Shown here: one piece after another, positions 16,452 through 54,095 of the stretch | How positions within the stretch are numbered: the first letter of the stretch is position 1 | Layout: each line of letters starts with the position of its first letter | NCBI GenBank assembly: GCA_024636675.1 | Contig: JAGXGM010000070.1 | Location: 1 to 54,095, forward strand | Length of the DNA stretch: 54,095 nucleotides | Source: Hydrogenophilales bacterium | Lineage (GTDB): Bacteria; Pseudomonadota; Gammaproteobacteria; Burkholderiales; Thiobacillaceae | Reading direction: 5' to 3' | Notes under the pieces: generated by a model | What the model saw: the letters and a program-made list of their open reading frames with translations, nothing else | What the model was told of the DNA's origin: nothing | The model's database searches: none | Made by a program: the position numbers and the translations under genes

Positions 16452-16671
16452 ACCGGTTGGTTCAGGCGTGATCTCGCGCTGGAAAAACCTGTGGGTGGCA
16501 AGCGGATATGCCGGTCAGCTGTGCGGGCCGCCGCAGCCGCTCCTTGCCGATTGTTACGTCATGCTTACAGGGTTTTCTCACAGCTGAGACATTCTTGCTT
16601 TCGCCCGAACGCTGCGTATAACAAATTGATTTGTAAGTGATATTTGCTTATTTTCGATTTTTGGCGCGCCG

Positions 16672-16693
16672 GCTGTCAAAAATGTGGGACAGC
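16672..16693. promoter_or_regulatory. Candidate activator-binding dyad (upstream activating site)
   Basis: GCTGTC and GACAGC form a perfect inverted repeat separated by ten bases. Its centre is about 85-90 bases upstream of the -24 box, a normal place for a sigma-54 enhancer-binding protein. That the neighbouring activator (22401-23816) binds here is inference. Confidence 0.4.
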
Positions 16694-16767
16694 TTGCCAG
16701 TGAAACCCCGGACTTCCGTCCTCTGTTGTTGCTAGAAACCTCTTTTGTTTCAATTAGATAGTCATGC

Positions 16768-16782
16768 TGGCACACGCCTTGC
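16768..16782 (+). promoter_or_regulatory. Sigma-54 (-24/-12) promoter
   Basis: TGGCACACGCCTTGC matches the RpoN consensus, with GG and GC exactly ten bases apart and good TGGCAC and TTGC halves. Transcription would start near 16794, leaving a leader of about 60 bases before the first amyloid gene. Confidence 0.75.
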
Positions 16783-16855
16783 GTTTGTGGCGGTGAAGTC
16801 TGTTTTCTGTGGCTTCGTCTTTTTGAACTCACTCAACTTAAATGGAGGTTTCATC

Positions 16856-18814
<1,959 letters not shown>

Positions 18815-18827
18815 GAACCAGGGCTAT

Positions 18828-18851
18828 CCCCCGGGGCCTGTGCTCCGGGGG
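18828..18851 (+). terminator. Strong hairpin between the first two amyloid genes
   Basis: A 10-bp GC-rich stem (18828-18837 with 18842-18851, one G-U pair) with a 4-base loop starts 14 bases after the stop of the large gene. No T-run follows, so it is more likely to protect the upstream message or limit read-through than to end all transcription. Confidence 0.6.
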
Positions 18852-18871
18852 CGTCCAGCGGAGAATCCATC

Positions 18872-19249
18872 ATGAAACGCCAAAGCTTGTATTTCCTGTA
18901 TTCCATTGTCTTGTTATCAGCAAATGGTGCGCCGCCATGGGCCGACCCAACATGGGCTGACCAGGGCGCAGTTCCGTCTGTTTCCGATCAGGACGTGTCG
19001 ATGTTCGGGTCGGCTGCCATCGCGGATGAGCAACTGGACCAGTTGCGCGGACGACAAACGGTTTTCAACAGCAACGATGTGGATGGCCAGTTGTACAACA
19101 ACGAGGCGGTGTCCAATGTCACCGGCAGCAATTTCGTCACCGACGGCTCCTTTTCGGGCATGTCGGGCTTTTCGACCGTCATTCAGAATTCGGGCAATAA
19201 CGTCCTGATTCAGAACGCCACTGTTCTGAATCTGCAATTTCAGCAGTAA
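18872..19249 (+). CDS. Small secreted protein, candidate minor amyloid subunit
   Basis: The 125-residue protein begins with a probable signal peptide (MKRQSLYFLYSIVLLS then Ala-rich). Residues 50-62 read IADEQLDQLRGRQ, a Leu-Arg-Gly motif shared with the fourth gene of the cluster. The C-terminal 25 residues (STVIQNSGNNVLIQN onward) match the ends of its two partner proteins. A GGAGA ribosome site precedes the ATG. It lies between the large subunit and the C39 peptidase, and I infer a nucleator or minor fibre component, similar in place to FapA/FapB. No family was recognised by sequence alone. Confidence 0.75.
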   Translation: MKRQSLYFLYSIVLLSANGAPPWADPTWADQGAVPSVSDQDVSMFGSAAIADEQLDQLRGRQTVFNSNDVDGQLYNNEAVSNVTGSNFVTDGSFSGMSGFSTVIQNSGNNVLIQNATVLNLQFQQ

Positions 19250-19264
19250 CAAAGGAGGTCACCG

Positions 19265-19951
19265 ATGCATATCGCGGGCAGCCTGCTTCTGGTCGTCCTG
19301 TCGGCTACTTTCCTCACGGCCAGGGCCGGCGAGGTGATGGTCCCCGACATGGGGGGCGGCTTGTTGAATGTAAAAATCACCAGTCTCAAAGAGCGCCGCT
19401 TTAGCACCACCATCCGCCAGCAGCACGACTACAGCTGCGGCTCGGCCGCACTGGCCACCTTGCTGACCTACCAGTACGACCATCCGGTCGACGAAGTCAC
19501 CGTTTTCAAGGCGATGTGGGAGACGGGCGACCAGGCCAAGATCAGCCGTGAAGGGTTTTCACTGCTCGACATCAAGCACTACCTGGAAGGCATCGGTTAT
19601 TCGGCGGACGGCTACACGGCACCGCTGGAGAAACTCGCATCGGTGGGGATTCCCGCCATCGTGTTGATCCGCGACAACGGCTACAACCATTTCGTCGTCG
19701 TCAGGGGCATCCGGGACGGCAAGGTGGCGGTCGCCGACCCGTCGATGGGTGCGCGTGTCATTCCCCTGGCGCAGTTCAAGAAGATGATGCTCAACCGCAT
19801 CCTCTTCGTCATCAACGGCCGCAAGGAACAAGTCGCTTTCAACCGGGCAGCGGACTGGAAAACTCGGGAGAAAGCCCCCATTGGCGCCGCCCTCGGAACG
19901 GATCACCTGGCCAGTTCGATCCTGCTGCGCCGTTCGCTGAGTGATTACTAG
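19265..19951 (+). CDS. Secreted C39-family cysteine peptidase (FapD-like)
   Basis: A 228-residue peptidase with an N-terminal signal peptide (~residues 1-22). The C39 core shows Gln53 and Cys58 in RQQHDYSCGSAALATLL, His142 in GYNHFVVVRG and Asp158 in VAVADPSMG, so the catalytic set is complete. C39 enzymes normally cut after double-glycine leaders in the cytoplasm as part of an ABC exporter. This one has no ABC domain and should act in the periplasm, as FapD of the Pseudomonas Fap amyloid system does. AAAGGAG lies just upstream of the ATG, 15 bases after the preceding gene. Likely substrates are the Leu-Arg-Gly proteins on either side. Confidence 0.88.
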   Translation: MHIAGSLLLVVLSATFLTARAGEVMVPDMGGGLLNVKITSLKERRFSTTIRQQHDYSCGSAALATLLTYQYDHPVDEVTVFKAMWETGDQAKISREGFSLLDIKHYLEGIGYSADGYTAPLEKLASVGIPAIVLIRDNGYNHFVVVRGIRDGKVAVADPSMGARVIPLAQFKKMMLNRILFVINGRKEQVAFNRAADWKTREKAPIGAALGTDHLASSILLRRSLSDY

Positions 19952-19966
19952 GCTCTGGAGACAATC

Positions 19967-20818
19967 ATGGCTATTGCTACACCACTACAAACCGCGTGTG
20001 CGGGTGCGTTGCTGGCCCTGGCGCCGATGCAGGGCGTGTTGGGCGCCGGCCTGGAAGCCGGCGATTTCGAGGGCTATCCCGTGGTCAGCAATCAGGCGTT
20101 GGCGGGTTTGCGCGGCGGATTCGAACTGAATGTCGGCGGGCAATTGCTCTCCCTGGCGTTCAGCCTGGAACGTGTCAGTTTCCTGAACGGCGAGTTGTTG
20201 ACCCGGACCCGCATCACGGTGCCGGACATCGCCGCTGCGATCCTGTCGCCGCAGAGTGTTTCGGTCACAGCTTATGCTGCGCCACCCGTCTCCGGCGAGG
20301 CGGCCGGCAATCCGGACAGCCCGCCGCCGCAGATTGCCAGCGTCAGCGTGCCGGACCAGGATACGGGCAGTCATGTCACGCTGATCCAGAATGGTGCCGG
20401 CAACAATGTGGCGCTGCCTGCCCAGGTGAACCCGGATGTGAGCCAGCCCCAGCAGGTGACCCAGCCCCAGCAGGTGACCCAGCCCCAGCAGGTGACCCAG
20501 GATGTGAACCAGCAGGTAAATCAGCAGGTAAATCAGCAGCTAAATCAGCAGCTAAATCAGCAGGTAAACCAGCAGGTAAACCAGCAGGTGAATCAGCAGG
20601 TGAATCAGCAGGTAAACCAGGCACTGCAGGCCGCGCAGGCGCAGATTCTGCAGGCCTATAACCAGGTTACGGTCATCCAGAACAGCCTGGATAACCAGAT
20701 CATCCAGAACATGACCACGCTCAATATCACCTTGTCCAACGCGGCACTGGCGCGGGCGGTCGAGTTGAATGCCGGCTTGGCGAAAGTGTTGAATATGCCG
20801 GTCGTGCTGCCTCAATGA
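19967..20818 (+). CDS. Secreted Q/N-repeat protein, candidate amyloid component
   Basis: A 283-residue protein with a likely signal peptide (~1-28). Residues 40-51 end in the motif LAGLRGG, followed by a conserved-looking beta domain (FELNVGGQLLSLAFSLERV). Residues 160-177 are three exact copies of a QPQQVT unit and residues 181-216 are nine NQQV/NQQL units. Residues 234-258 (VTVIQNSLDNQIIQN onward) repeat the C-terminal motif of the two other secreted proteins, and a shorter version (VTLIQNGAGNNV) occurs near residue 140. GGAGAC precedes the ATG. The place in the operon suggests a FapE-like or FapB-like minor component; this is inference. Confidence 0.78.
   Translation: MAIATPLQTACAGALLALAPMQGVLGAGLEAGDFEGYPVVSNQALAGLRGGFELNVGGQLLSLAFSLERVSFLNGELLTRTRITVPDIAAAILSPQSVSVTAYAAPPVSGEAAGNPDSPPPQIASVSVPDQDTGSHVTLIQNGAGNNVALPAQVNPDVSQPQQVTQPQQVTQPQQVTQDVNQQVNQQVNQQLNQQLNQQVNQQVNQQVNQQVNQQVNQALQAAQAQILQAYNQVTVIQNSLDNQIIQNMTTLNITLSNAALARAVELNAGLAKVLNMPVVLPQ
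20444..20614 (+). repeat. Tandem repeats inside the Q/N-rich gene
   Basis: Three identical 18-base units (20444-20497) are followed after a nine-base break by nine near-identical 12-base units (20507-20614), all in frame. The copy number is likely to vary by slippage without breaking the frame, changing the length of the Q/N tract. Confidence 0.9.
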
Positions 20819-20858
20819 TTGATCGAGGTGGACAGGCAAAAAATCGATGCGATGCAGC

Positions 20859-20887
20859 GCTTGAGCCCGCCCCCGGCGGGCTCAAGC
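20859..20887. terminator. Bidirectional terminator between convergent amyloid genes
   Basis: A perfect 13-bp stem with a 3-base loop sits between the stop of the Q/N-repeat gene and the stop of the convergent FapF-like gene. No long T-run is present on either strand, but stem strength and position make it the shared end of both transcripts. Confidence 0.7.
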
Positions 20888-20896
20888 AACGCTGGA

Positions 20897-22213
20897 TCAG
20901 AACGTGTAGGGCATCCGAAGGGTGAATTGGGTATCAGGCGAGTCATCCGTCAGGCCGGCCCCGATCGACAGGCTCAGCGATGTGTTCTTGTTGAGGCGAT
21001 ACGCATAGCCCAATAGCAAGCTCGCCGTCTGCAGGCTGGTCGTGCCCACGGTAATGTCACCATCCGTCTTGGTCTTGCCGATCCAGGTGTGCTCGTAGCC
21101 GATGCTGAATGAACTGCGTTCGTTCAGCCCCAGTCCCATACCGAAGTTGATTCCGACCGCGTCGCCGGGATCGACCTCCCCGACAAAGCTGCTTTCAACC
21201 CCTTCAAGCGATTTGTTGACGTCGCGCTTGATGTTCCATTGATAGTTGATGCCACCGAAGAATACCGCCGGATCGGTGGGGTAAATCATGCTCAGGCTGG
21301 GTTGCAGCGAATAGAAGCCCGACCCGGTGGGCAGCGATGTCTGCAGGGATGGGAGACTGGGACCGGCCGACAGATAGCCGACTTCAAACGGATCCTCGCC
21401 GGTACGGGTTTTGAGGCGCAGGCCGCCGATGAAATAGGGATTGCCCGGCTTCGGCACGTTGAGCTGGTAGCGGCCGGCCAGTTCGATATCGCCCAGTCCG
21501 GAGCCATCGGCGTTGAATACGATGGCGGCACTTGAGGGCGCCAGGTCGATCGGACGGCTGACGGTGTCGTCATTGCGGTAAACATATGGAACCCGCCCCT
21601 CGATTTCCAGCCGGTTGGTCAGGCCGTAGCGTGCAGTCAGACCGGCTACCGCGGTGGTGCGATGGACGGTGCGCACATCGATCAGGCCGATGACCAGGGC
21701 GGGAATAATGGTGTAGCCGACGATGGAAACCCGGTCCGAGGAGGAATATGAGTACTGCAGCGAGGGTTCCAGGGTGAGACGGCCGCGTGGCGAGAGCACG
21801 CCAGGCTGTTCAAACAGGGGCGCGATTGCAGGGGGACGGCTGTCTTCCTGGACGGGCGCCTGGCCGACCGGGCGACCGGTGGGGGGCGCGTCAGCCTGGC
21901 TGACACGGGTTGCCGGCTGCGCCCTGCTTGCCGCCTGGGCAGGCTTTGCGGGCGCGGTCGCCAGTTGTTTTTGCAAGGCTTCCAGTTTTTTTTCCAGGGC
22001 GTCGAGATGTCGGTTCGATTCGTCTATCCGGCGTTGCTGTTCCGCCAGCTTGAGGGCTTGCGCCGCGACCTGCTGGCGCAACTGGCCCAGGTCCGGCTGG
22101 GGGGCCGCGGCATCCGGAGGCGCCTGCCGTACGGTTTGAGCATGAACCACCTGCACCCCCAGCATCATCACCAGACCGGCGCGCAGCCAGGTTCTATTTT
22201 TTGTCATCATCAT
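20897..22213 (-). CDS. FapF-like outer-membrane pore for amyloid export
   Basis: The 438-residue product has a signal peptide (~1-25, ending VVHA), a predicted coiled coil (~40-92, heptad-like EQQRRIDESNRHLDALEKKL), a Pro/Ala-rich linker (~93-150) and a C-terminal beta-barrel of about 290 residues ending in FTLRMPYTF, with the terminal Phe of outer-membrane proteins. This order (coiled coil, linker, barrel) is that of FapF, the trimeric pore that secretes Fap amyloid. Three ATGs in a row (22213, 22210, 22207) follow AGGGGG; the second or third fits spacing better. It converges on the subunit operon, unlike Pseudomonas where fapF is in the same operon, so it needs its own promoter in the region 22214-22400. 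Confidence 0.8.
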   Translation of the reverse strand: MMMTKNRTWLRAGLVMMLGVQVVHAQTVRQAPPDAAAPQPDLGQLRQQVAAQALKLAEQQRRIDESNRHLDALEKKLEALQKQLATAPAKPAQAASRAQPATRVSQADAPPTGRPVGQAPVQEDSRPPAIAPLFEQPGVLSPRGRLTLEPSLQYSYSSSDRVSIVGYTIIPALVIGLIDVRTVHRTTAVAGLTARYGLTNRLEIEGRVPYVYRNDDTVSRPIDLAPSSAAIVFNADGSGLGDIELAGRYQLNVPKPGNPYFIGGLRLKTRTGEDPFEVGYLSAGPSLPSLQTSLPTGSGFYSLQPSLSMIYPTDPAVFFGGINYQWNIKRDVNKSLEGVESSFVGEVDPGDAVGINFGMGLGLNERSSFSIGYEHTWIGKTKTDGDITVGTTSLQTASLLLGYAYRLNKNTSLSLSIGAGLTDDSPDTQFTLRMPYTF

Positions 22214-22400
22214 GCCCCCTGTCGAAAAGACGCATTCGTTTTGGCCGGCCAGGCTTCCGGGTTTTGATGGCCGGCATTCAACGAGTGTGTGGTCAAAAAA
22301 CGCTTGTATTCATTCCAGTCTGTTTAGTAGATTTTTGGGGATTTGCACGTTGACTGGCGAACGTGGCGCATTCAGCGTGCGCCGGAATGGCGGGGTGGGG

Positions 22401-23816
22401 TCAGATGGGCTTGCTTGCCCACGGCAGCCTGCCCTCCGGGATGGCTGGCGACGGCACCTGCTTCAGGATGGCCTTGCCCTTGTAGGGACCGGACAGTTCA
22501 TAGCGCTCCAGCAGGCGATACAAGGTGGCGCGCGAGACCCCCAGTTCCCGGGCCGCCTCGGACACGTTGTGCTGGCAGCGGCGCAAGGCCGCGCGAATGG
22601 CGTCGATTTCAGCTTTGGCGCGCGCGCCATCGAGGGTCGGGCGTCCTGCGCTCGACGCACGCCGCTCCATTCCCAGGTCATCCGGGGTCAGATAGGGATG
22701 GTCGGCCATGACCATGCCCTGGCGGATGCGGTTCATCAATTCCCGCACGTTGCCAGGCCAGGCATATTGGTTCATCGCACGCAGGGCCTGCCGGCTGAAG
22801 CCTTTGACCTTGCCGCCGTTGTCCCCGGCAAACCGGCCCAGCAGGGCCTGCGCCAGAAGTTCCACATCCCCTTGCCGGTCTCGCAGGGGAGGCGCCTGGA
22901 GGTTGACGACGTTCAATCGGTAATACAGGTCTTCCCTGAAACGGCCTTTTGCCACGGCCTCCCAAAGATTGATATGGGTCGCCGCGATCACCCGGACATC
23001 CAGCTGGATGGGCTGGTTCGAACCCAGCCGTTCGATCACTCTGTCCTGCAGCACGCGCAGCAGGTTGGCCTGCAGATTGAGGGGCAGGTCGGCAATTTCG
23101 TCGAGAAACAGCGTGCCGCCCTGGGCCGCTTCCAGGCGCCCGATCTTGCGTTGATACGCACCGGTAAATGCGCCTTTTTCGTGGCCGAACAGTTCGCTCT
23201 GGATGAGATGGGTGGGCAAGGCCCCGCAGTTGACCGCCACAAAGGCATGGTTGCTGCGGGTGGACATATTGTGGATGGCGTGGGCGGCCAGCTCCTTGCC
23301 GGTGCCGCTTTCACCGCCGATCAGCACGGGCGCATCCACCTTGCTGGCCTTGCGGAGTGAGCGGGAGAAAGCCAGCATCGCCGGGCTGCTTCCCACAATG
23401 CCGTGTTCTTCCAGGGTGTCCGGGCGCGAAGGCAAAGGCTTGAGCAACTGACCCTTGCCCCAGGCGTGCCCCAGGGAAATGGCCAGCCGGTCCTGGTCGA
23501 CCGGAAGGGTATGGAAATCGTATACCCCCGCGAGAAAATTGCGGAGTTGGGGGGTGGGGCGCCACATCGACTGATCCATCAGTGCAATCCACTGCAGGGA
23601 TTGCTGTCGTCCCACCAGATCGAACAGCTTGTTGTGGCCGACGCGCTGCAGTTGCATCAGCCCTGCATGAAAGTCCTGCTGCTCGACGAGCGCGGCCAAA
23701 TCATCCGCATTGGCCGCCCGGTGCAGGGTCCAGCCCCTTGCCTGCAAATAGCCAAAAAGCCTGGTGTGCAGCGCGTCATCCAGCAGCGCCACAACGTCTC
23801 GATTTACCGAAGTCAT
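22401..23816 (-). CDS. Sigma-54-dependent transcriptional activator (VpsR-like)
   Basis: A 471-residue enhancer-binding protein. The N-terminal ~135 residues resemble a degenerate receiver of the VpsR/FleQ kind and lack the usual acidic triad. The AAA+ domain (~137-375) has Walker A GESGTGKE (168-175), the sigma-54 contact loop GAFTGA (215-220) and Walker B GTLFLDEIADL. A Fis-type helix-turn-helix closes it (~425-450, NVSEAARELGVSRATLYRLL). The start at 23816 follows GGAGAGGAAA. It ends 187 bases upstream of the FapF-like gene and most likely controls the amyloid locus through the -24/-12 promoter at 16768. The VpsR-like head hints at c-di-GMP responsiveness, which is not shown here. Confidence 0.9.
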   Translation of the reverse strand: MTSVNRDVVALLDDALHTRLFGYLQARGWTLHRAANADDLAALVEQQDFHAGLMQLQRVGHNKLFDLVGRQQSLQWIALMDQSMWRPTPQLRNFLAGVYDFHTLPVDQDRLAISLGHAWGKGQLLKPLPSRPDTLEEHGIVGSSPAMLAFSRSLRKASKVDAPVLIGGESGTGKELAAHAIHNMSTRSNHAFVAVNCGALPTHLIQSELFGHEKGAFTGAYQRKIGRLEAAQGGTLFLDEIADLPLNLQANLLRVLQDRVIERLGSNQPIQLDVRVIAATHINLWEAVAKGRFREDLYYRLNVVNLQAPPLRDRQGDVELLAQALLGRFAGDNGGKVKGFSRQALRAMNQYAWPGNVRELMNRIRQGMVMADHPYLTPDDLGMERRASSAGRPTLDGARAKAEIDAIRAALRRCQHNVSEAARELGVSRATLYRLLERYELSGPYKGKAILKQVPSPAIPEGRLPWASKPI

Positions 23817-52202: not shown

Positions 52203-52529
52203 GTGAATCTGGCGCCCAATGCCAACAACGACCTGACCATCACCGCCATGGATAAATCGGGCATAACGGATTCCTTTGCCAACTGGGCCGCGCTGGATGA
52301 CTGGGTCAATGGAGAAAACCGGATACTGGTGCTGTCGACGACCGGAAATCTGATGCAGTTCGTCACCATCAATTCTGAATTCGGGGTCTTGGGGGTGTTT
52401 GGTGGTTTGGATCAATACAAGCAGACCGAGATTTCCGGTGTTACCGCTGTCCCCGAGGCCGACACCTACGCCGTGCTGCTGGCCGGTCTCGCTCTGGTGG
52501 GCTTCGCCGCACGCCGCAATCTGGCCTGA
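52203..52529 (+). CDS. PEP-CTERM protein lacking its N-terminus
   Basis: The last 25 residues form a PEP-CTERM sorting signal: the Val-Pro-Glu motif, a hydrophobic stretch (TYAVLLAGLALVGFA) and a terminal Ala-Arg-Arg cluster, recognised by exosortase for export and anchoring. The frame opens only at a TAG six codons before the GTG, so no signal peptide is encoded, and the 108 residues are short for such proteins. It is probably the remaining 3' part of a larger gene. No exosortase gene is in this window. A terminator follows 17 bases after the stop. Confidence 0.7.
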   Translation: MNLAPNANNDLTITAMDKSGITDSFANWAALDDWVNGENRILVLSTTGNLMQFVTINSEFGVLGVFGGLDQYKQTEISGVTAVPEADTYAVLLAGLALVGFAARRNLA

Positions 52530-52576: not shown

Positions 52577-52769
52577 GCGTAACGAAGAGGTCTTTCGCCG
52601 GCTGTAAATACGGCCGTCCCGGAACATGGAGCGGGTGATGGATTTGCGGATGTGAGCCGGGTTTTTGCCGAAAAAACATAAATCATTGAATATAAAAGAA
52701 TAAATAATTTTCTATTATTGTCCGACCCCCTAAAGTCCGTCGAAATATCGACGTAACTGTTGATAATCC

Positions 52770-52850
52770 TGTAAAGGGCAAACTCGTCGTGAGGCGAGGA
52801 CGCAAAGCTACCGGTCTTTGAACTAAGACGGCGGGGCTGCCAGTGGAAGC
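52770..52850 (+). ncRNA. Cyclic-di-GMP riboswitch (GEMM-I)
   Basis: The sequence holds the GEMM-I core: AGGGCAAAC, a short hairpin closed by a GTGA (GNRA) tetraloop, GACGCAAAGC with the tetraloop receptor region, a second helix (CCGGTCTT with AAGACGG) and GGCGGGGCTGCC at the 3' side. The middle G of AGGGC, and a C at the 3' partner place, are the bases associated with c-di-GMP rather than cGAMP. The start codon of the protease gene is about 67 bases downstream. A hairpin (AGCCAT, loop T5, ATGGCT at 52848-52864) and the T-run inside it may form the switching part; a GGCT/AGCC stem followed by T6 could act as terminator. Confidence 0.9.
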
Positions 52851-52916: not shown

Positions 52917-54095
52917 ATGTCGCATCAATGCCCATTCCCCGTCCGTTCGACCGACAGCCGCTACAGCTACCGTGCCGGCAGCGTGCCGGGCTTTACCCTG
53001 AGCCTTGCCCTGGTGGCGGCCCTGGCGGGCTATGCCGGGCTCAGCGACGCCGCACCTGCAGCGCAGGCAAACGCCAAAGCGTCCGGGGCGGTCACGGAGA
53101 TCCCCGTTTCCTCAGGCGCTGCCATCGGCTGGGCCAAGGGACGCCTGCTGATGGCGCCGCGCGCCGGCCTGCCCGATAAAGAATTCGACAAAATATTGAA
53201 GTCGCTGAACGCCAGGTCGAAAGGCCGCTTCAGCCGGACCCATACCCATGTTGTCGAGCTGCCACCGGGGATGGACGAGGTGAAGGCCATGCAGGTGCTG
53301 AAAAAGGATCGACGCCTGAAATATGTCGAGCTCGACATGGCGCTGGCGCCGTCTCTCAGCGTGAACGATCCCTCGTATTCGAACAGCTGGGCCTTGCCGA
53401 AAATCCAGGCGCCCAATGCGTGGGACAAGGCCAACGGCAGCGGTGTGACCATCGCTATCCTGGATACCGGCGTGAATGGCAACCATCCCGACCTCGCCGC
53501 CAACATGGTTCCGGGTCGCAATATTTTCGACAACAACACCGATACGGCCGACGTGAACGGCCATGGCACCTCGGTGTCGGGCGCGGCAGCGATGGTGGGC
53601 AACAATGGCACGGGTAGCGCCGGCGTGGCCTGGGGCGCGAAGATCATGCCGGTGCGCATTTCCGGCCTGGACGGCTATGCCTACTACAGCACGATTGCGC
53701 AGGGGATCAACTGGGCCGCCGACAACGGCGCCCGCGTGGCCAACGTGAGCTACGGCGTATCCGGCAGCGCATCCGTGCAGTCGGCGGCGAACTACATGCG
53801 CAGCAAGGGCGGCGTGGTGGTGGTTGCTGCCGGCAACAGCGGCATCGACGAAAACATCGCAGCGCACGATTCCATGCTGAGCGTCTCGGCGACCGGCAAC
53901 ACCGATGGGCGCCCCAGCTGGTCGAGCTACGGCAATTACGTCGATCTCGCCGCACCCGGCGTAAGCATTTACGCGCCCACCCGCGGCGGCGGCTATGCCA
54001 ACGTGTCGGGCACCTCTTTTTCCGCGCCGATCACGGCCGGCACTGTCGCCCTGATGATGTCGGCCAATGCCAAGCTGACGCCGGCGGATGTCGAC
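52917..54095 (+). CDS. Secreted subtilisin-like serine protease (S8), 3' end outside window
   Basis: 393 codons are visible and the gene continues past the window. A signal/anchor region (~residues 25-50) is followed by an inhibitor-like propeptide (~65-135) and the S8 catalytic domain: Asp in AIAILDTGVNGNHPDL, His in VNGHGTSVSGAAAM, the oxyanion Asn in VVVAAGNSG and Ser in SGTSFSAPITAG. All catalytic residues are present. AAGGAG lies six bases upstream of the ATG. The c-di-GMP riboswitch in its leader means expression follows c-di-GMP level; a role in surface-protein processing or biofilm release is inference. Confidence 0.92.
   Translation, partial: MSHQCPFPVRSTDSRYSYRAGSVPGFTLSLALVAALAGYAGLSDAAPAAQANAKASGAVTEIPVSSGAAIGWAKGRLLMAPRAGLPDKEFDKILKSLNARSKGRFSRTHTHVVELPPGMDEVKAMQVLKKDRRLKYVELDMALAPSLSVNDPSYSNSWALPKIQAPNAWDKANGSGVTIAILDTGVNGNHPDLAANMVPGRNIFDNNTDTADVNGHGTSVSGAAAMVGNNGTGSAGVAWGAKIMPVRISGLDGYAYYSTIAQGINWAADNGARVANVSYGVSGSASVQSAANYMRSKGGVVVVAAGNSGIDENIAAHDSMLSVSATGNTDGRPSWSSYGNYVDLAAPGVSIYAPTRGGGYANVSGTSFSAPITAGTVALMMSANAKLTPADVD

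What the first reader, a model, noticed from the sequence alone, without database searches (positions are those of the whole stretch)
16452..23816. Diverged Fap-type functional amyloid locus with new subunits and sigma-54 control
Seen: a gene set of three secreted low-complexity or repeat proteins, a secreted C39 peptidase with a full catalytic set, and a convergent outer-membrane protein built as coiled coil, linker and barrel, plus a sigma-54 activator. Known: the Pseudomonas Fap system pairs fibre proteins FapB/C/E with FapD (C39 peptidase) and FapF (coiled coil-barrel pore). Inference: this is a distant Fap relative. It differs in that the main secreted protein is Asn/Asp/Ser- plus Gly-rich and lacks FapC repeats, the pore gene is on the opposite strand, and a dedicated activator sits at the end.
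Basis: partly seen in the sequence, partly recalled or inferred. Interest (0 to 1): 0.85.

Follow-up and report, generated by a model that had tools for sequence, protein, structure and literature searches.

The report
Sister system of Fap amyloid fibres
A sulfur bacterium carries a cousin of the Pseudomonas Fap amyloid-fibre system that is common in related bacteria, and its proteins suggest, in a testable way, what the system's essential but unexplained protease cuts.

Summary
The gene set is real: three secreted proteins (A, B, E), a C39 peptidase (D), a FapF-like barrel (F) and a sigma-54 activator (R), with an exact -24/-12 promoter before A. D and F are homologues of FapD and FapF (F matches FapF crystal structures, E 9e-32). 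In trees they fall apart from the Fap group. A, B and E hit no FapB, FapC or FapE model, while control Fap proteins do. B-D-E-F was found in 78 of 80 named loci, mainly Burkholderiales-type. I read it as a sister system of Fap.

The most useful result: B and E carry a leader (hydrophobic -12, L -7, RG-G) resembling double-glycine C39 leaders, and FapE carries the same frame with RG-R/K. FapD's substrate is reported as unclear, so this predicts a cut site. A stricter form of the published consensus fits only a minority. A and B share a C-terminal module that weakly resembles the Fap repeat. Amyloid formation is inferred, not shown.

The parts
16768..16782 (+). sigma-54 (-24/-12) promoter, about 74 nt before the ATG of A
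   Evidence: only exact match to TGGCAC-N5-TTGC in the window; with 1 mismatch allowed the window has 4 matches against 7.1 expected, so only the position and the exact match speak for it. Similar sites lie before 22 of 41 A-like genes in relatives
16856..18814 (+). gene A: large secreted low-complexity protein (N/S/D-rich, then Gly-rich with period three)
18683..18811 (+). C-terminal module of A, homologous to that of B
   Evidence: hhalign prob 98.8 between A-like and B-like modules
18872..19249 (+). gene B: small secreted protein, the most telling marker of this system
19019..19054 (+). predicted leader site of B (residues 50-61, I-12, L-7, R-3 G-2 R-1)
19265..19951 (+). gene D: FapD-like C39 peptidase
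19967..20818 (+). gene E: secreted protein in the position of FapE
20084..20119 (+). predicted leader site of E (residues 40-51, V-12, L-7, R-3 G-2 G-1)
   Evidence: RGGF invariant in 14 aligned relatives
20860..20886 (.). perfect 12-bp hairpin between the converging genes E and F; possible two-way terminator
   Evidence: read by eye from the sequence
20897..22213 (-). gene F: FapF-like outer-membrane pore
   Evidence: PDB 5o67/5o65/5o68 FapF matches; NCBIfam FapF; tree
22401..23816 (-). gene R: sigma-54 activator with VpsR domain, directly upstream of F on the same strand

Best explanation
A sister system of Fap that exports and assembles surface or biofilm fibres. R, perhaps in response to c-di-GMP, activates the sigma-54 promoter before A (inferred from the sequence and by analogy with BrfA). 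A, B, D and E enter the periplasm by Sec (inferred). D recognises a leader in E and B (hydrophobic -12, L -7, R -3) and cuts after RG-G, or RG-R in the window's B (predicted from sequence). Processed E and B, with A, leave through F (inferred from FapF). Outside, the shared C-terminal modules of A and B stack into a Fap-like core while A's long arms coat the fibre (inferred, the weakest step).
For: F matches solved FapF, D and F match FapD and FapF models. B-D-E-F conserved in 78 of 80 named loci. Site sought as RGG in E: found in 80 of 80 E segments, with L at -7 in 80 of 80; sought as RG[GRKMA] in B: 80 of 80, L at -7 in 80 of 80; sought as RG[RK][FY] in FapE: 18 of 18, L or M at -7 in 18 of 18. 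Position -12 is V, L, I, M or A in all of these. L..[LMIV][RK]G[GRK]: 27 of 32 E, 14 of 18 FapE, 28 of 1944 other ORFs, 0.5-0.9% of shuffled sequences. A published C39 leader consensus is L(-12)xxxE(-8)L(-7)xxxxG(-2)G(-1) (PMC6959990, passages). A and B modules are homologous and resemble the Fap repeat. Sigma-54 sites before 22 of 41 A-like genes against 34 of 1600 random windows.
Against: A stricter leader pattern with E, D or Q at -8 and a hydrophobic -4 fits only 8 of 80 E, 8 of 80 B and 8 of 18 FapE (background 60 of 6719). Without the leader region E and FapE are not detectably similar (prob 0.9). The Fap repeat profile alone does not find A or B (best E 0.23). An A-like gene was recognised before B in only 37 of 80 loci. 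R lies within the fetched flank in 38 of 80. Structure models of B and E are poor (pLDDT 51 and 52). No experiment shows fibres.
Confidence: 0.65

Rival explanations
1. Same export machinery, but the product is not amyloid: A, B and E form a Gly-rich surface coat, adhesin or matrix protein.
For: A's Gly-rich part has a strong period of three (0 of 500 shuffles in each of two stretches), unlike the Fap fibre subunits; A and B have 0 or no recognised Fap repeats.
Against: The shared A/B module resembles the Fap repeat; machinery is Fap-like.
Confidence: 0.25
2. It is simply a member of Fap whose subunits have drifted.
For: Same gene order logic, FapD and FapF kinship, leader frame shared with FapE.
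Against: D of 18 Fap loci forms one group and the 46 window-type D fall in another (with 2 divergent loci), SH-aLRT 94 each, below the 95 mark; one genome, G158, holds both types; FapB, FapC and FapE models find control Fap proteins but not A, B or E.
Confidence: 0.06
3. It is a form of the Acinetobacter Fil putative pilus system.
For: D also hits FilB (E 9.6e-35) and F hits FilC (E 2e-15).
Against: FapD and FapF score higher for both; the one Fil peptidase in the tree lies outside both groups.
Confidence: 0.02
4. A peptide (bacteriocin-like) export locus, since C39 peptidases and double-glycine leaders are typical of these.
For: C39 fold match to a double-glycine protease (6mpz, E 1.1e-8) and leader frame.
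Against: D stands alone with a signal-like start; no ABC exporter among the nine neighbouring proteins scanned; the partner is a FapF-like pore; the A protein is large and low-complexity.
Confidence: 0.02

Closest known systems
Fap, functional amyloid of Pseudomonas (fapABCDEF)
   Same: C39 peptidase and FapF-type pore homologous; E in the place of FapE with the same leader frame; RpoN promoter and nearby activator, as published for PF07.
   Different: A, B and E unrecognised by FapB, FapC and FapE models; one C-terminal module in place of three repeats; no FapA recognised; D and F in other tree groups.
Fil, putative pilus system of Acinetobacter
   Same: FilB and FilC models match D and F.
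   Different: Lower scores than FapD and FapF; FilB row outside both groups.
Peptidase-containing ABC transporters (PCAT1, LahT) and their double-glycine leaders
   Same: C39 fold; hydrophobic -12, L -7, G -2, G -1.
   Different: D has no ABC part and a signal-like start, so the cut would be in the periplasm; -8 acidic residue mostly missing.

Membership tests
Fap system | FapD-type C39 peptidase | tested here: inconclusive
   FapD is the best family (E 2.9e-41) but 141 bits against a cut-off of 330; a control Fap peptidase also fails the cut-off (280.7). In the tree D falls outside the Fap group
Fap system | FapF-type pore | tested here: met
   FapF crystal sequences E 9.2e-32; FapF model E 1.3e-47, below its cut-off of 700
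Fap system | FapB and FapC with Fap repeats | tested here: not met
   no FapB or FapC model match for A, or for B in 13 of 13 members, while control proteins match; A has 0 strict repeats. Weak module resemblance only
Fap system | FapE | tested here: inconclusive
   0 of 14 E proteins match the FapE model; controls match. Profile comparison prob 93 at the leader, 0.9 without it
Fap system | single operon fapABCDEF | tested here: not met
   A-B-D-E on one strand, F with R on the other; separation of fapF also occurs in known Fap genera (PMC3792158)
Fap system | amyloid fibres of the subunits | not testable with these tools
   needs staining, microscopy and extraction
Fap system | RpoN promoter with adjacent activator (PF07) | tested here: met
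   PMC9207406. R was not compared with BrfA itself
Fil pilus system | FilB and FilC as best families | tested here: not met
   FapD and FapF score higher
double-glycine C39 leader | L(-12), L(-7), G(-2), G(-1) | tested here: met
   hydrophobic -12 and L -7 in 80 of 80 E and B; G -1 in 69 of 80 B
double-glycine C39 leader | E(-8) and hydrophobic -4 | tested here: not met
   E, D or Q at -8 with hydrophobic -4: 8 of 80 E, 8 of 80 B

The most novel reading that the evidence does not exclude
A second, widespread family of peptidase-gated fibre systems: a periplasmic C39 peptidase releases two leader-bearing subunits for export through a FapF-type pore, and the fibre joins a single-repeat cross-beta module to long Gly-rich arms. 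The same leader code, in RG-R/K form, marks FapE as the substrate of FapD in Pseudomonas.
Probability: 0.4. Interest if true: 0.8.

Novelty: new variant of a known kind. Interest (0 to 1): 0.62.

Why it matters
FapD's peptidase activity is needed for FapC secretion, but its target is described as unclear and Fap proteins as lacking canonical C39 sites (PMC5557850, passages). In the sister system the site appears in near-canonical RG-G form in two proteins, and FapE shows the same frame, so the question becomes a point-mutation test. The system also looks common: 475 places encoding relatives of B in one scan of named genomes, of which 80 were kept and examined.

Tried and rejected
Tried with little result: structure models of B and E (mean pLDDT 51.1 and 51.6), so no fold search was run. 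Fap repeat profile alone (A/B no better than E 0.23). E against FapE without the leader (prob 0.9). Literature listings on Fil and on amyloid in Cupriavidus or Thiobacillus: nothing on point seen in the listings.

Considered and set aside: F strand as a defining difference; sigma-54 control as new. Curli genes were not searched for. No FapA model match was seen among the proteins scanned, but the control FapA candidate also matched no model (L103), so absence of FapA is untested.

Limits. The E profile was built over the leader, so E counts are partly selected by it. The 80 named loci were found by C-terminal peptides of B, and L at -7 was not part of the site search, so B is the cleaner test; the site letters themselves (RGG, RG[GRKMA], RG[RK][FY]) were part of the search. 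The 18 FapE were picked by me as the ORF after D. Near-identical loci are counted separately (for example L137/L173, L188/L195/L201). Random windows for sigma-54 sites were not matched for composition or intergenic position, and the A and B start codons were set by a rough rule; the 22 of 41 and 0 of 78 were counted from the printed rows. In the order sample of 250 genomes 47 had a D match; wider loci were read for 23: 17 window type, 5 Fap, one of them both, 2 neither. In the class sample 60 of 274 had a match; 20 were read: 7 window type, 12 Fap, 1 partial. Searches used A one residue short and R from an earlier open start.

Full report
What is there. The window is one contig of a 2.54 Mb, 81% complete assembly. 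The nearest named loci for gene B are a Hydrogenophilales MAG and Thiobacillus denitrificans RG. A-B-D-E run on the + strand behind an exact sigma-54 promoter; R and F run on the - strand; the two units meet at a perfect hairpin.

Machinery. D is a C39 peptidase with its catalytic residues; the same residue pattern is in 80 of 80 D segments of the named set. Its best family is FapD, then FilB; F's is FapF, then FilC. F matches the FapF crystal sequences. Scores lie below the curated cut-offs, but so does a control Fap peptidase (280.7 against 330), and none of 274 genomes of the class passed that cut-off. In the D tree (70 rows) 18 Fap peptidases form one group and the 46 window-type ones another with 2 divergent loci, SH-aLRT 94 each, just under the 95 mark. 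In the F tree (58 rows) 39 window-type pores group with 2 divergent loci (support 100); 14 of 15 Fap pores group together (83), one falls elsewhere, and the tool warns of long branches.

Conservation. In 80 named loci: B 80, D 79, E 79, F 78, R 38 within the fetched flank; B-D-E in order on one strand in 79. F is on the other strand in 37 and on the same strand in 41; R lies next to F on its strand in 18. An A-like gene was recognised before B in 37, so A is not shown to be universal. By their titles the hosts are mainly Cupriavidus, Paraburkholderia, Massilia and its kin, Dechloromonas and Thiobacillus-type bacteria; single records are titled Nitrospira and Planctomycetota and may be binning errors. 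More distant forms lie on Photobacterium and Polymorphobacter plasmid records.

Cargo. A, B and E hit no FapB, FapC or FapE model (A; B 13 members; E 14 members), while the FapB, FapC and FapE of two control loci do. The modules of A and B are homologous (prob 98.8). Against the Fap repeat profile the module of A gives prob 80 over 35 columns, that of B 42 over 24, both together 76 over 34; 0 of 300 column shuffles reached the observed score in each case, and reversed profiles scored far lower. The Fap repeat profile alone does not find them (best E 0.23). So a distant link between the A/B module and the Fap repeat is suggested, not proven. A's Gly-rich part has a period of three (60 G pairs at lag 3 against 41.8 expected, and 54 against 35.5; 0 of 500 shuffles each); a polyglycine-type bundle is my inference.

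Leader. L..[LMIV][RK]G[GRK] occurs in 27 of 32 E and 14 of 18 FapE, against 28 of 1944 other ORFs and 0.5-0.9% of shuffled sequences; in the named set 67 of 79 E fit a slightly wider pattern and the other 12 also read RGGF; for B 75 of 80 fit L...[RK][GE][GRK] and the other 5 read RGM or RGA. Counting from the R as -3, L stands at -7 in 80 of 80 E and 80 of 80 B, L or M in 18 of 18 FapE, and V, L, I, M or A at -12 in all. Against: with E, D or Q at -8 and a hydrophobic -4 also asked for, only 8 of 80 E, 8 of 80 B and 8 of 18 FapE fit (background 60 of 6719). A short helix is modelled just before the site in B (52-58) and E (42-47), at low confidence. The published consensus is L(-12)xxxE(-8)L(-7)xxxxG(-2)G(-1), helix at -10 to -4 (PMC6959990, passages). 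FapD's target was called unclear, Fap proteins were said to lack canonical sites, and no peptides were seen from about the first 70 residues of FapE (PMC5557850, passages). My searches for a published FapE site showed none in their listings; most subscription papers and preprints are outside that library.

Regulation. Sites with at least 9 of 10 matches lie before 22 of 41 A-like genes, 0 of 78 B genes and in 34 of 1600 random windows; perfect sites 8 of 41 and 3 of 1600. PF07 fap has an RpoN promoter by 5'-RACE and an adjacent reverse activator gene, brfA (PMC9207406, passages); BrfA is described as sensing c-di-GMP (PMC13101488, passages). R has a VpsR domain; R was not compared with BrfA. 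The genome encodes sigma-54.

Known before. Co-located fapD and fapF homologues were reported in five further phyla (PMC6173800, passages), and FapD and FapF models were said to belong to larger families (PMC3792158, parts of three sections). The pairing is therefore known. What this work adds is the conserved B and E cargo, the leader frame and the sister-system reading.

Verdict. A real and widespread sister system of Fap, with a concrete prediction for its peptidase. Fibre formation is the main untested step.

Noticed in passing
window 52768-52845 (+) and 52917-54095 (+): A c-di-GMP-I-GGC riboswitch (RF03167, 70.5 bits) lies about 70 nt before a secreted ORF that runs off the window end and looks like a subtilisin-type protease (by eye).
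   Followed up: no
window 52203-52529 (+): Small ORF with a C-terminal tail that looks like a PEP-CTERM sorting signal (motif recalled, not searched).
   Followed up: no
window 20500-20640: The VNQQ repeat run in E is long here, short in L127 and absent from the other 12 relatives aligned.
   Followed up: partly
L102-L109: Loci with true Fap repeats also carry an R-like sigma-54 activator in the fetched stretch in 8 of 8.
   Followed up: partly
L066 and L049 (genome G158): One genome holds both the window-type system and a Fap system.
   Followed up: partly
L126: In this Acinetobacter record the FilB-like peptidase reading frame is interrupted by a stop.
   Followed up: no
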